Position numbers and translations under genes: made by a program. This document shows, piece by piece, positions 25,209-30,299 of a DNA stretch of 64,000 nt; position 1 is the first letter of the stretch, and every line of letters starts with the position of its first letter. Below the pieces are notes generated by a model. It had not been told where the DNA came from and ran no database searches. It worked only from the letters and a program-made list of their open reading frames with translations. Where the stretch lies: assembly GCF_025770725.1 (NCBI RefSeq), contig NZ_JANZKZ010000001.1, positions 496,001 through 560,000 on the forward strand, given 5' to 3'. This DNA comes from Sulfurospirillum oryzae (GTDB taxonomy: Bacteria; Campylobacterota; Campylobacteria; Campylobacterales; Sulfurospirillaceae).

Positions 25209-27050
25209 GTGAAATCACTCAAAACACTCTGTATCTCTCTTTCTTTAGTTGCATCAAGCCTATGCGCAGGCACCAGCGTAGAATTCATCGGCATGAATGC
25301 GCCAACAACGCCTGAACAGATGGCAAAAACCTACTCGGAAGCTAAAGTCATCATCCATACACAAAGTGGTGGCAAGATCGAAAGAGCGCTTTCGTATGAA
25401 ACGCTTTTTGGTGTTAAAGATAAAGTTGGCACAAGCAAAAACCCTGCTGGACAGCTTTACTCCGCTTCCATGAAACCTCTGCTCGACCCTTTTGGTAAGC
25501 CCCTCATCGCTGAGACTCCCGATAGCAACTCGCTTTTAAATGTTGAAGGCTCACTTTACCTTGTAACGCATTATGAATACGACTGGATTTTAAGCAATGG
25601 TTCTTCGGCTGAGAAAACAGATGTTTGGCATGAGCGAGCACCGATGAGCATGACACTCACATCTCTTCGTCAAAATCCTGTGGATGGCAAGCTCAAAGCT
25701 GTCGATCAATACCCCATCGATTTTTCAAAGGTTGGTGGCATCTGGATACCATGTGCAGGTTCTCAAACACCGTGGAACACTCACTTAGGAAGCGAAGAAG
25801 ATTATGATCTTTTCTTTACAAAGGCAAGTGGAAAAGAGTATCAACGAGCACAAAAAGGGCTCAAAGCAATGAGTGAGCTCTACTTTGAAGGTAAAAAAGA
25901 GGCGAAAGCTTATGACTATGGCTACATCACCGAAGTCACTGTCAAACCCAATGGCAAAACCTCTGTTAAAAAACACTATGCGATGGGTCGAGCCACATGG
26001 GAAATGTCTAAAATCATGAGTGACAAGAAAACCGCCTTTTTTGGCGATGATGGCACACAAGTTGGTCTTTACATGTACATAGGAGATGGCGAAAAAGAAC
26101 TCGACAGCGGTACACTCTACGCAGCAATCTGGAATCAAACCAATGAAGATAATGCCAAAGATGGCGGTCAAGCAACTCTGAGTTGGATCAAACTAGGACA
26201 CGCCAGTAGCGAAGAGGTATGGCGATGGAAAGAAAATCTAAGCTTTGATGACATCTTTGAGGCGTATTCGCCCGCAGAGTATGACCCTCAAAAGCATGAA
26301 GGATTTAAAGCAATCAAAGCGGGTCACTCTGAAATTGAGTACATCAAACTCAAACCAAATATGGAACGTGCCGCAGCCTTTTTAGAGACCAGACGTTATG
26401 CCGCTTACCTTGGAGCAACAACCGAGTTTAACAAAATGGAAGGTGTTGCCTTTAACAAAAAAGATAAAAAACTCTACATCGCCATGTCTTACATCGAAAA
26501 AGGTATGACTAAAGATGCAAGTTTTGGCAAAGATGACATTAGAGTTGCTAAAAATCGTTGTGGTGGAACTTACGAGTTATCGCTAGCATCTGGGGTTTCT
26601 GACACGAATGGAGAAGCTATCAAAAGTGAATTTGTCCCAACCTCAATGTATGTCCCCGCTCCTCTTTTAGGACAAGAAGTCCCTGCCGATCTTTTTGGGA
26701 ACACCTGCGCAGTTGACAAAATTGCCAACACAGACAACCTCTTTTACTCATCAGCAATGCGTACGCTTTTCATCGGTGAAGACAGTGGCGCACATGTGAA
26801 CAACTACTTGTGGGCATACAACATCGACACGAAAAAACTTTCACGCATTCTTTCTATCCCAGCAGGTGCGGAGTCAACAGGATTGCAAGTGGTTGAAAAT
26901 ATAAACGGCTATGCGTACATCATGAGCAACGCCCAACATCAAGGTGATTTTATCAAAACCATGGACAAGGTGCTTCAAATTAAAGTTGCCCCTAAAATCG
27001 ATAAATTTCAAGCACCCGTTGGTTACCTTTATGGCATACCAGGGCTTTAG
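25209..27050 (+). CDS. PhoX-like phosphatase (DUF839 family)
   Basis: A 613-aa exported protein with a signal peptide (LKTLCISLSLVASSLCAG). The mature protein follows the PhoX/DUF839 beta-propeller pattern: VEGSLYLVTHYE, GGIWIPCAGSQTPWNTHLGSEE, the RRYAAYLGATTEFNKMEGVAF segment and the C-terminal FIGEDSGAHVNNYLWAYNI. PhoX enzymes are calcium/iron-dependent alkaline phosphatases or relatives that recycle phosphate outside the cytoplasm. The start is GTG 25209, with GGAGG 7 bp upstream; the in-frame ATG at 25149 would remove the signal peptide from the N-terminus. Confidence 0.85.
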   Translation: MKSLKTLCISLSLVASSLCAGTSVEFIGMNAPTTPEQMAKTYSEAKVIIHTQSGGKIERALSYETLFGVKDKVGTSKNPAGQLYSASMKPLLDPFGKPLIAETPDSNSLLNVEGSLYLVTHYEYDWILSNGSSAEKTDVWHERAPMSMTLTSLRQNPVDGKLKAVDQYPIDFSKVGGIWIPCAGSQTPWNTHLGSEEDYDLFFTKASGKEYQRAQKGLKAMSELYFEGKKEAKAYDYGYITEVTVKPNGKTSVKKHYAMGRATWEMSKIMSDKKTAFFGDDGTQVGLYMYIGDGEKELDSGTLYAAIWNQTNEDNAKDGGQATLSWIKLGHASSEEVWRWKENLSFDDIFEAYSPAEYDPQKHEGFKAIKAGHSEIEYIKLKPNMERAAAFLETRRYAAYLGATTEFNKMEGVAFNKKDKKLYIAMSYIEKGMTKDASFGKDDIRVAKNRCGGTYELSLASGVSDTNGEAIKSEFVPTSMYVPAPLLGQEVPADLFGNTCAVDKIANTDNLFYSSAMRTLFIGEDSGAHVNNYLWAYNIDTKKLSRILSIPAGAESTGLQVVENINGYAYIMSNAQHQGDFIKTMDKVLQIKVAPKIDKFQAPVGYLYGIPGL

Positions 27051-27162
27051 TATCTGAGTATGTTTAAAACATTCTTTCATTTATGAAAAAAGTAAAAAAC
27101 AGTGCTCTTTATGTAATCTCAAAATATTATAATGAAAAATATCTCATTATTAAGGAGTCATG

Positions 27163-27794: not shown

Positions 27795-28190
27795 ATGTCA
27801 CTCATTACGCACTTAGACCATCTTGTCTTAACGGTTGCAAGTATCAAGCGAAGTTGTGCTTTTTACACAAACGTCTTACAGATGGAAAAGATAGCTTTTA
27901 AAAGATTCAAAGCACTCAAATTTGGACACAGCAAAATCAATTTGGATGAAATAGGCATGAGTTTAAACCAAAAACCATACATCCAACCGCAGACTCAACC
28001 GATCTATGCTTGATCACGCACATGCCAATCGAGCAGTTTTTAGAGTATTTACATCATTGCGGTGTTGTTTGTATTGAATGACCTTTAAAATAAATAGAGC
28101 TAGACATGAACTACTTTACTGACTTTCTGTCTATTTTCGTGACCCCCGATGGGAAACATCATCAAAGTCGCTAATGAGCTAATGCCAATG
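27795..28190 (+). pseudogene. Decayed VOC/glyoxalase-family gene
   Basis: The first frame reads LDHLVLTVASIKRSCAFYTNVLQM, a typical vicinal oxygen chelate N-terminus, and stops at 28013. The next pieces appear in other frames: LITHMPIEQFLEYLHHCGV near 28010-28075, then VTPDGK and IIKVANEL near 28140-28180, the expected end of such a protein. At least two frameshifts and an internal loss have destroyed it. It has an intact ribosome site (AAGGAAA). Confidence 0.75.
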
Positions 28191-28329
28191 TGCTAGGCAA
28201 TGTAAAAAGTTAACGAGTCTTTCAATTTTAAGTACCTAATAACTTAACCAATCTACAAAAAAGAGTAAAATTAATAATTTTAAGTTATTATATTGTTCAA
28301 AATTATAATTTATTTAGAGGAGATATTAT

Positions 28330-29538
28330 TTGACTAGTATTAATCAGATTCTTGAATCTTATATCAATCAACTTGACTCTATTTATTATTCATTACCAAT
28401 AGTTATGAAAAGTACAATTGATGCTACTCAATTAGCAAATGACGGCGTCAAAATATTTCTTGAAAAATATGGAGAAGAAATTGATGATGATGATGGACAC
28501 AAAAGCTTTAATCTTCCTATAAAATTTTCAAAACACATAAATAGAAAGAAAAAGAGAGTTGATCATTTAAAAATCGCCTTATCGCAATTACCAAAAAATT
28601 TTTTAGTTTCTTATGTTTCTGCATATGACGCTTTTTTAGGAAAATTATTAAGAGCATTATATACCTTACATCCCGAATTACTTAATTCAAGTGAACGCGA
28701 ATTACAGTTTAAAGAGCTTATTGAATTTGCGTCCATTAATGATGCAAGAGAGTATATTTTGGAAAAAGAGATTGAATCTGTTTTAAGAAAAAGCCATGCC
28801 GAACAATTTAAATATATGGAAAACAAATTCAATATACTGCTAACAAAAGATTTAAAAATTTGGCCAGAATTTATTGAAATTACTGAAAGAAGAAATTTAT
28901 TAGTACATAATGATGGTATTGTTTCAAACCAATATCTCAAAACATGTAAGTTAAATAATATCCAAACAGAAGAAAAGGTAAATAATATTATTCAGGTTAA
29001 TAAACATTATTTGAAAAATGTTTATTTATGCTTGTACGAATTAGGCTTTAAGTTAGCTCATGTTTTATGGAGAAAAGTTTTGAAAGATGATTTAGAAAAT
29101 GCAGACAGTAATTTAATAGATACTACTTATGAACTTCTTGCTAATAAACAATATGATTTAGCAAAAATTCTTCTTGATTTTTCATTAATAATACTTAAAA
29201 GTCATCACAGTGATGTTAACAAAAGAGTCTTACTTATTAATAGAGCTTTAGCATATAAATTAAGTGGAGACCATGAAAAGTGTAAAGAAGTTATTTCAAA
29301 AGATGATTGGAGTTCTTGTAGTATAACATTCAAGTTAGCTGTCGCTGTACTTCAAGAAAACGATGAAAAAGTTTATAAGTTAATGAAAACAATTGGAAAA
29401 GACAATCAAGAATTACCTGAACATGCGTATGAGGAATGGCCTCTATTCAGAGCTTATAGAGATAAAGATGAATTTTTAAATGCCTATCAAGAAATTTTTG
29501 GAAAAGACTTAGAAATAATTGAAAAAATTGAGATTTAA
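28330..29538 (+). CDS. AT-rich HEPN-like protein with helical repeats (candidate RNase/defence gene)
   Basis: A 402-aa protein whose base composition is clearly more AT-rich than its neighbours. Residues 94-108 (SYVSAYDAFLGKLLR) and Arg188-x4-His193 (RNLLVH) resemble HEPN-domain proteins of the MAE_28990/abortive-infection type, where the R-x4-6-H motif is the RNase site. The last 150 residues look like TPR-type helical repeats (ELLANKQYDLAKILL, LINRALAYKLSGDHEKC). It starts at TTG 28330 with GAGGAG 7 bp upstream. Single gene after a decayed gene: likely acquired. The function is inference. Confidence 0.6.
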   Translation: MTSINQILESYINQLDSIYYSLPIVMKSTIDATQLANDGVKIFLEKYGEEIDDDDGHKSFNLPIKFSKHINRKKKRVDHLKIALSQLPKNFLVSYVSAYDAFLGKLLRALYTLHPELLNSSERELQFKELIEFASINDAREYILEKEIESVLRKSHAEQFKYMENKFNILLTKDLKIWPEFIEITERRNLLVHNDGIVSNQYLKTCKLNNIQTEEKVNNIIQVNKHYLKNVYLCLYELGFKLAHVLWRKVLKDDLENADSNLIDTTYELLANKQYDLAKILLDFSLIILKSHHSDVNKRVLLINRALAYKLSGDHEKCKEVISKDDWSSCSITFKLAVAVLQENDEKVYKLMKTIGKDNQELPEHAYEEWPLFRAYRDKDEFLNAYQEIFGKDLEIIEKIEI

Positions 29539-30299
29539 CTTTTAAACAGCACGCTCATGCAGGTTAGCCCTGCCTCAGCCTTTACAAACTCACTGATATT
29601 GACTGTTTCAACCCTGTAGCCCAGCGATTTTACCAGCGCAATGCTTTTAGGAAATGCTTCGTTCATGCAAAGGATGTTGCCGATTTTCAGCACATTGACG
29701 CCAAAAGGCTCATCGCTGAGTGCTTCGATTTTAGAAAAACCTTTAAATGCTTCTACATCCACCCAGTTAGAATTGATAAAAATCGTTTGATTGTCCAATG
29801 CTGTAACGCCTGTTTTGAGATGCAAACATCCAAAAACTTTCACCGCGATGACCTCATAACCCAAAGGCTTGATGATCGCTTCGAGTGCTTGAATGCCCTC
29901 TTGATTGGTACGTGATGACTCACCTACAAAGATTTTTTTACCTACTTTCAAAACATCGCCACCTTCAATTTTTGCGGGTAATGTGATTCGCTCTATTTTG
30001 CGGTACTGCGAAAAGACTTTTCCCATAGATGCACTCTCGGCTCTGCGTGACTCCACACCCATAGAGGTCAACACGGCGACCTCATCAAAAACAATGATGG
30101 GATCTTCCACAAAAACACTATCGGGCAGTGCGATATTTTCATCTAACGTAATGACCTTTGCCCCACAACGCTCCAGCATGGAGCGATAATTTTGATGTTG
30201 AACATTGGCCTTTTCAATGTCAATCGCTTCACTTTCTAAAAACGTAAGCTCGCAGTTTTGTAAATTTGGAGATGGAAGATGGGTAATCGCCATAAGCAT
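29535..30299 (-). CDS. Dimethylarginine dimethylaminohydrolase (DDAH)-family amidinohydrolase
   Basis: A 254-aa guanidine-modifying enzyme. The family triad is visible: Glu112 in KIEGGDVL, His160 in GCLHLKTGV and the nucleophile Cys247 in AGLTCMSVLF; SVFVEDPIIVFDE is the substrate-loop motif. DDAH relatives hydrolyse methylated arginine or arginine to citrulline. In a bacterium with amino acid use nearby it may act on free arginine-type guanidines. The ATG at 30299 has AGGA 8 bp upstream. Convergent with the HEPN gene (4-bp overlap). Confidence 0.88.
   Translation of the reverse strand: MLMAITHLPSPNLQNCELTFLESEAIDIEKANVQHQNYRSMLERCGAKVITLDENIALPDSVFVEDPIIVFDEVAVLTSMGVESRRAESASMGKVFSQYRKIERITLPAKIEGGDVLKVGKKIFVGESSRTNQEGIQALEAIIKPLGYEVIAVKVFGCLHLKTGVTALDNQTIFINSNWVDVEAFKGFSKIEALSDEPFGVNVLKIGNILCMNEAFPKSIALVKSLGYRVETVNISEFVKAEAGLTCMSVLFKS

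What the first reader, a model, noticed from the sequence alone, without database searches (positions are those of the whole stretch)
28330..29538. AT-rich single-gene insert encoding a HEPN-like protein with helical repeats
The gene is visibly poorer in G+C than both neighbours, begins with TTG, stands next to a decayed gene and has R188-x4-H193 plus a motif seen in HEPN abortive-infection type proteins. The combination with a TPR-like C-terminus could be an uncharacterised RNase defence gene.
Basis: inference. Interest (0 to 1): 0.6.

Follow-up and report, generated by a model that had tools for sequence, protein, structure and literature searches.

The report
Mobile HEPN-TPR anti-phage candidate gene
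An AT-rich gene that dropped into an otherwise normal bacterial chromosome belongs to an uncatalogued family of likely RNA-cutting (HEPN) proteins, spread patchily over many phyla and carried by P2 phages and P4 satellites in the slots where they keep anti-phage genes, so it is very probably a one-gene phage-defence system.

Summary
Window 28330-29538 (+) encodes 402 aa at 26.8% G+C (window 39.7%). It is the only gene of a ~1.35-kb insert: three congeners join the VOC gene directly to the DDAH gene with ~18 bp between them, and none of 23 congeners has it. The upstream VOC gene is frameshifted.

The protein belongs to a family in no searched library at a significant score (Pfam, NCBIfam, PADLOC, PHROGs). 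I recovered about 50 members from at least ten phyla. It meets the published sequence hallmarks of an active HEPN RNase: R188-x4-H193 and N189 invariant in 47/47, acidic-x3-R in 47/47, motif at the end of helix 3. A confident model (pLDDT 93) adds an N-terminal helical hairpin and a TPR-like C-terminus. PDB fold searches did not independently return HEPN structures.

The strongest functional evidence is outside the window. Homologues sit in the P4-satellite int-psu antiviral hotspot and the P2 cos-proximal hotspot, beside TIR, type I R-M, GmrSD, Dpd and AbiQ-like genes elsewhere, and inside an Eco57I-MTase/PLD-helicase operon in cyanobacteria.

Best reading: stand-alone HEPN RNase defence effector whose TPR part senses or restrains, acting by abortive infection. 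RNase activity, trigger and protection are untested.

The parts
28180..29534 (.). AT-rich insert (about 1.35 kb, 26.5% G+C) between the VOC pseudogene and the DDAH gene
   Evidence: Empty site in G012, G008 and G019: about 18 bp where the window has 1.36 kb. Ends exact only to about 10-20 bp.
28318..28322 (+). Shine-Dalgarno-like AGGAG, 7 nt before the TTG start
   Evidence: Sequence
28330..29538 (+). 402-aa HEPN-TPR protein gene, TTG start; its last 4 nt overlap the 3' end of the convergent DDAH gene
   Evidence: ORF; full-length homologues at about 30-45% identity and a partial one at 60%; dN about 0.30 against dS about 1.5 to the nearest relative
28330..28518 (+). aa 1-63: long N-terminal helix plus small beta hairpin
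   Evidence: AlphaFold2 model, pLDDT 93 overall
28519..29079 (+). aa 64-250: HEPN-like core (helices 64-113, 136-152, 178-194, 225-250, with insert helix 156-167)
   Evidence: AlphaFold2 models; helix order and motif position compared with PMC3710099
28774..28788 (+). aa 149-153, acidic-x3-R element in helix 2 (E or D at 149 in 47/47, R153 in 47/47)
   Evidence: Alignment A2; HEPN 'Ex3[KR]' element
28891..28908 (+). aa 188-193, R-N-x3-H predicted RNase motif (R188, N189 and H193 invariant in 47/47)
   Evidence: 16 of 16 rows lacking the FIEITERR search seed keep RRN...H
29086..29523 (+). aa 253-398: TPR-like helical repeat with conserved D326-W327-S328 and W370-P371-x-F373
   Evidence: Structure matches to Rap, PlcR, NprR and LGN TPR regions, Z about 10; conservation
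27795..28190 (+). Decayed VOC/glyoxalase gene flanking the insert
   Evidence: Frameshifts and stops against intact 129-aa congener genes
29535..30299 (-). Intact DDAH/arginine-deiminase-like gene, the other flank (native, not part of the system)
   Evidence: Pfam ADI; orthologues in 10 of the 23 congeners

Best explanation
A laterally acquired, stand-alone anti-phage gene. Its protein is a HEPN ribonuclease (core aa 64-250, active site R188/N189/H193 with E149 and R153) joined to a C-terminal TPR-like helical repeat (aa 253-398). Most likely it sits in the cell as an inactive, probably dimeric HEPN protein. The TPR part, alone or through a host or R-M partner, recognises or is released by a phage product, and the HEPN site then cuts RNA metal-independently, stopping translation and growth before phage release (abortive infection). 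Shown here: the insert, the family, conserved active-site residues, domain layout, purifying selection, and homologues in antiviral hotspots and beside defence genes. Inferred: RNA cleavage, dimerisation, the trigger, the abortive outcome and protection itself.
For: Motif: R188, N189, H193, R153 and an acidic residue at 149 conserved in 47/47 members sharing about 30% mean column identity. These match the HEPN features in PMC3710099: Rx4-6H at the end of helix 3, polar residue (mostly N) after R, Ex3[KR] in helix 2, insert between helices 2 and 3. Tha-1, a proven HEPN defence RNase, has the same R-N-x3-H form (PMC11087260). Sequence links: PADLOC RTasHEPN weakly matches 20/47 members over the motif (best E 3.4e-4); one member matches Pfam HEPN_RiboL-PSP at 2.5e-4; a gene beside a UG36 defence reverse transcriptase aligns over 143 columns through the motif. 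Fold: pLDDT 93, pTM 0.89; TPR-like C-terminus. Context: selC-int-[gene]-psu in E. coli P4-like satellites, P4-like elements in Erwinia L051 and viral L063, portal-[gene]-replication protein in P2-like L064, all with a shared cos-proximal sequence, i.e. the hotspots shown to be rich in anti-phage systems (PMC9122126). Other neighbours: TIR, CAP12-PCTIR, AAA_15, GmrSD, HsdR, DpdF, AbiQ, HEC-05. Patchiness: absent in 23 congeners, closely similar copies crossing phyla.
Against: PDB searches with the whole model and with aa 1-252 returned TPR proteins and generic helical bundles, no HEPN structure (inconclusive). Profile comparison with a six-member HEPN_RiboL-PSP set did not align the motif. The profile links to known HEPN models are weak. 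Many homologues sit between housekeeping genes, as in the window. The PADLOC neighbour tally had no control set. No activity, toxicity or protection data exist for any member that I could find.
Confidence: 0.7

Rival explanations
1. Second-line effector of restriction systems (PrrC-like): the HEPN-TPR protein is restrained by R-M subunits and released when a phage disables them; solo copies have lost or never needed the partner.
For: In Nostoc plasmids and two further cyanobacterial loci it lies in one operon with an Eco57I/type IIG methylase, a 183-aa protein and a PLD-SNF2 helicase, with start/stop overlaps. Type I R-M genes are nearby in Crinalium, L049 and L052. The PrrC-PrrI precedent and R-M-linked HEPN clades are reviewed in PMC3710099.
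Against: Most members, including the window's and those in the P4/P2 hotspots, have no R-M genes adjacent.
Confidence: 0.15
2. A selfish addiction or toxin gene (toxin-antitoxin-like) that stabilises mobile elements rather than a phage-defence gene.
For: HEPN toxins are common in TA modules (PMC3710099); members occur on plasmids and integrated elements.
Against: No conserved small partner gene or MNT antitoxin next to it: neighbour clustering shows no recurrent partner outside the cyanobacterial operon. The window insert is one gene with no room for a protein antitoxin.
Confidence: 0.1
3. A non-catalytic RNA- or protein-binding regulator built on a HEPN-like helical bundle, for instance helper-phage interference by P2/P4 elements.
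For: No HEPN structure was recovered by fold search; presence in P4 satellites next to cos could reflect helper interplay.
Against: The invariant residues are those of the HEPN RNase site and include N189 and the acidic-x3-R pair. Most members are in hosts and loci with no P2/P4 element.
Confidence: 0.05

Closest known systems
HEPN superfamily RNases (Anantharaman et al. 2013, PMC3710099)
   Same: Rx4H with N after R, motif at the end of helix 3, Ex3[KR] in helix 2, insert between helices 2 and 3, association with R-M and mobile elements.
   Different: Matches no named HEPN family significantly; has its own N-terminal hairpin and C-terminal TPR-like part with conserved DWS and WPxF elements.
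Tha (S. aureus prophage, PMC11087260)
   Same: Single protein carried by mobile elements, HEPN with R-N-x3-H, works alone in abortive infection.
   Different: Tha is 301 aa with the HEPN at the C-terminus and no reported TPR; here the HEPN is central and followed by a TPR-like domain. Homology to Tha was not tested by alignment.
RTasHEPN / DRT-associated HEPN (PADLOC PDLC03820) and the gene beside the UG36 RT of Aliarcobacter faecis
   Same: Shared sequence across the HEPN motif region (aa 145-199); nearest catalogued relative.
   Different: RTasHEPN is a 148-position HEPN-only model listed with reverse transcriptases; the present family is a solo gene with a TPR-like domain.
HEPN_LA2681 (PF18733)
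   Same: Recorded as fused to TPR or in operon with TPR genes (PMC3710099): same general architecture.
   Different: The Pfam model does not match the window protein at E up to 5.
PrrC / PrrI and RloC
   Same: HEPN nuclease linked to restriction systems, possible model for the cyanobacterial operon.
   Different: No ABC-ATPase domain; R-M linkage is not general in this family.

Membership tests
HEPN superfamily (catalytically active) | Rx4-6H motif with polar (mostly N/D/H) residue after R | tested here: met
   R188-N189-x3-H193 invariant in 47/47; kept in 16/16 rows without the FIEITERR seed
HEPN superfamily (catalytically active) | Motif at the end of helix 3 / start of the loop to helix 4 | tested here: met
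   Helix 178-194 carries R188 and H193 at its end; next long helix 225-250
HEPN superfamily (catalytically active) | Conserved acidic residue in helix 2 as Ex3[KR] | tested here: met
   E/D149 and R153 in 47/47, helix 136-152
HEPN superfamily (catalytically active) | Two alpha hairpins matching solved HEPN structures | tested here: inconclusive
   No HEPN chain among Foldseek/VIA matches of whole model or aa 1-252; helix order agrees
HEPN superfamily (catalytically active) | Significant profile match to a HEPN family | tested here: inconclusive
   RTasHEPN 20/47 members, best 3.4e-4; HEPN_RiboL-PSP one member 2.5e-4; HEPN_Cthe2314 3 members, best 0.0067; nothing significant for the window protein itself. 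A4 comparison negative
HEPN superfamily (catalytically active) | Metal-independent RNase activity | not testable with these tools
   Needs biochemistry
HEPN_LA2681 (PF18733) | Match to the Pfam model | tested here: not met
   No match for the window protein at E up to 5
RTasHEPN (DRT component) | Adjacent defence reverse transcriptase | tested here: not met
   Single-gene insert in the window; no recurrent RT among family neighbours
Tha | C-terminal HEPN after an N-terminal domain without detectable homology | tested here: not met
   HEPN core is aa 64-250, followed by a TPR-like domain
TPR proteins | TPR-like helical repeat fold | tested here: met
   aa 253-398 align to Rap/NprR/LGN TPR regions, Z about 10, rmsd 3-5 A over 100-140 residues; sequence-level TPR Pfam hits only in a few members
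Anti-phage systems of P2/P4 hotspots (PMC9122126) | Located between int and psu (P4) or portal and gpA (P2), next to cos | tested here: met
   Met by homologues L089, L090, L051, L063 (P4-like; no psu found in L051) and L064 (P2-like), not by the window copy itself
Anti-phage systems of P2/P4 hotspots (PMC9122126) | Demonstrated protection against phage | not testable with these tools
   No experiment found; the paper's system tables (supplements) could not be read

The most novel reading that the evidence does not exclude
This is an unnamed HEPN family in which one polypeptide holds both the RNase and its own phage sensor (the TPR-like repeat with nearly invariant DWS and WPxF elements). It would be a minimal, partner-free bacterial immune receptor shared by Proteobacteria, Bacteroidota, Campylobacterota, Cyanobacteria and others, shuttled by P2 phages and P4 satellites and sometimes wired into restriction operons.
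Probability: 0.45. Interest if true: 0.7.

Novelty: new variant of a known kind. Interest (0 to 1): 0.55.

Why it matters
HEPN RNases are a major class of anti-phage effectors, but what triggers the single-protein ones is mostly unknown. This family is not significantly matched in any library searched, is spread over at least ten phyla, has a clear predicted active site plus a separate candidate sensor domain, and has a natural E. coli P4-satellite member that can be cloned and tested directly against standard phage panels. If it defends, defence surveys currently miss it, and it offers a compact system for asking how a TPR-like domain gates a HEPN nuclease.

Tried and rejected
Single-sequence scans of genome and viral contigs with the window protein found nothing; only the alignment query worked. 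Phage GenBank records gave no match with the window or Erwinia protein. PDB sequence searches found nothing. PDB fold searches returned TPRs and generic bundles; no HEPN listed, read as uninformative. The best viral-structure match, A0A8S5NVI2 (E 4.4e-4, TM 0.39), is an uncharacterised phage protein and was not pursued. Considered and rejected: a native regulatory gene (absent in all congeners); chance motif (47/47 conservation); IS or prophage remnant (no integrase or tRNA beside the insert); terminal-repeat-flanked element (no convincing flanking repeats); TA pair (no partner gene); membership in PDC-S34 (the hit is only a C-terminal extension of one member, L038). PADLOC RTasHEPN gave no hits in 150 class genomes, so no set could be built from it. 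Promoter and terminator scans were not above shuffles.

Full report
OBSERVATION. The gene at 28330-29538 (+) is a 402-aa ORF starting with TTG, preceded by AGGAG at a spacing of 7 nt. Its G+C is 26.8% (17.1% at third positions) against 39.7% for the window; 6 of 1256 windows of that length are as low. Both flanks are ordinary: DJ-1/PfpI and a decayed VOC gene on the left, a DDAH/arginine-deiminase-like gene on the right.

INSERT. The genomes of 23 congeners lack the gene. Eight that keep the DDAH gene were compared. In G012, G008 and G019 the 3' end of the VOC gene (window 28177) is followed after ~18 bp by the DDAH stop codon (window 29535). The window therefore carries about 1.35 kb that these lack: one gene and its leader, with no integrase, tRNA, IS or convincing flanking repeats. 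The VOC gene, intact (129 aa) in four congeners, is frameshifted here. Whether the decay followed the insertion cannot be told.

FAMILY. The window protein has no significant match in Pfam, NCBIfam, PHROGs or PADLOC. tblastn on plasmids found full-length relatives in Nostoc and Crinalium and a genome search found two in Campylobacterota. An alignment query then gave 45 loci in reference genomes and 4 in viral contigs. Hosts include Bacteroidota, Pseudomonadota, Cyanobacteriota, Chloroflexota, Planctomycetota, Myxococcota, Spirochaetota, Cloacimonadota, Sumerlaeota and Campylobacterota. Occurrence is sparse: 4 of 397 genomes by profile in the phylum, one of them a distant match, and 5 of 5426 E. 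coli genomes. The tree pairs the window protein with an epsilonproteobacterial MAG (100/99). It places another campylobacterotal copy (Hydrogenimonas) among marine Gammaproteobacteria (100/99) and a gammaproteobacterial MAG inside Bacteroidota (100/98), as expected of lateral transfer, though MAG contamination cannot be excluded. Selection is purifying: dN 0.30 and dS 1.49 to the nearest relative, dN/dS 0.03-0.14 in three other pairs.

HEPN CORE. In 47 aligned members R188, N189, H193, R153, E183, R187, G196 and Y202 are invariant, and position 149 is E or D in all. The loci were found partly with the peptide FIEITERR, which biases R187/R188; but 16 rows lack that string and all keep RRN...H, and N189, H193, 149 and 153 were not seeded by it. 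The 2013 survey of the superfamily (PMC3710099) describes Rx4-6H with a polar residue after R, placed at the end of helix 3; an acidic residue in helix 2 within Ex3[KR]; and an insert between helices 2 and 3. All are met in the AlphaFold2 model: helices 64-113, 136-152, insert 156-167, 178-194, 225-250 (mean pLDDT 93.2, pTM 0.89; aa 1-252 alone 92.9). Sequence links to named HEPN models exist but are weak: RTasHEPN in 20/47 members, HEPN_RiboL-PSP and HEPN_Cthe2314 in single or few members, and a 272-aa protein beside a UG36 reverse transcriptase in Aliarcobacter faecis. A direct comparison with six HEPN_RiboL-PSP proteins did not align the motif. PDB fold searches gave no HEPN chain, which with long coiled helices in the model is uninformative rather than negative.

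C-TERMINUS. Residues 253-398 align to TPR regions of Rap, NprR, PlcR and LGN at Z about 10. Helical repeats score easily, so this says TPR-like, not a specific family. D326-W327-S328 and W370-P371-x-F373 are invariant or nearly so, which suggests a specific binding or packing role (inference).

CONTEXT. E. coli NCTC11476 and MS20655 carry a member (474 aa, 37% identity over the length) as selC-int-[gene]-psu-delta. This is the int-psu slot of P4-like satellites that PMC9122126 describes as a reservoir of anti-phage systems. Erwinia L051 and viral contig L063 carry P4-like integrase, delta-like, Icd and primase genes around theirs (psu found in L063 only); in L064 the gene lies between a P2-like portal and a replication-protein homologue, the second hotspot of that paper; all four share a cos-proximal sequence next to the gene. 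Elsewhere neighbours include TIR (L021), CAP12-PCTIR (L032), AAA_15/21 (L027), GmrSD (L048), type I restriction subunits (L010, L049, L052). Among 134 near neighbours PADLOC also finds DpdF, HEC-05, PsyrT and AbiQ (no control set was run). In cyanobacteria it is third in an operon of Eco57I/IIG methylase, 183-aa protein, [gene], PLD-SNF2 helicase. About half of the scanned neighbours are housekeeping genes, like the window's.

MECHANISM. Most likely a self-contained HEPN RNase kept inactive until infection, with the TPR-like part as sensor or brake, then RNA cleavage and growth arrest. Tha offers a precedent with the same R-N-x3-H form: a prophage-borne single HEPN protein, activated by phage tail proteins, inactivated by the H-to-A change (PMC11087260). 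DS-11 (PMC13092281) is another one-protein HEPN system with a separate regulatory domain. For the present family, RNA cleavage, dimerisation, trigger and protection are inference.

NOVELTY. The kind (HEPN RNase defence) is known. The family is not significantly matched in the libraries searched, and its accessions do not occur in the held literature. PMC9122126 mentions uncharacterised HEPN genes in the P4 hotspot; I could not read its tables, so this gene may already be listed there, tested or not.

Noticed in passing
L009:2461-10915, L011:5181-12565, L050, L058: Cyanobacterial operon of Eco57I/type IIG methylase, 183-aa coiled/membrane-like protein, HEPN-TPR gene and PLD-SNF2 helicase (PADLOC C3a139-like), partly on plasmids; looks like a composite restriction system worth its own study.
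   Followed up: partly
L013:5785-8681: Aliarcobacter faecis plasmid pAFAEC: UG36 defence reverse transcriptase followed by a 272-aa HEPN-like gene distantly related to this family.
   Followed up: partly
L038:530-2050: An Anaerolineae member has a C-terminal extension (aa 413-493) matching PADLOC candidate PDC-S34 (E 1.6e-14), so the family acquires extra domains.
   Followed up: no
window 27049-27128: Congeners G008 and G019 have about 1.9 kb here with a 571-aa gene of unknown function (contains a CxxCH motif) that the window lacks.
   Followed up: partly
L036, L058, L061, L012:8001-8213, L002: Several homologues are broken or truncated (frameshift, fragment, internal TGA or contig end), as is common for accessory defence genes.
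   Followed up: partly
L051:11226-11275: A 50-bp sequence at the 3' end of the Erwinia gene recurs in about 1290 E. coli genomes; where inspected it lies at a P2-like element near the portal and replication genes, at or near cos, so the defence gene abuts or overlaps it.
   Followed up: partly
L015:502-1359: The Hydrogenimonas copy follows a DUF6236 gene and an integrase-like fragment, near a transposase fragment downstream.
   Followed up: no
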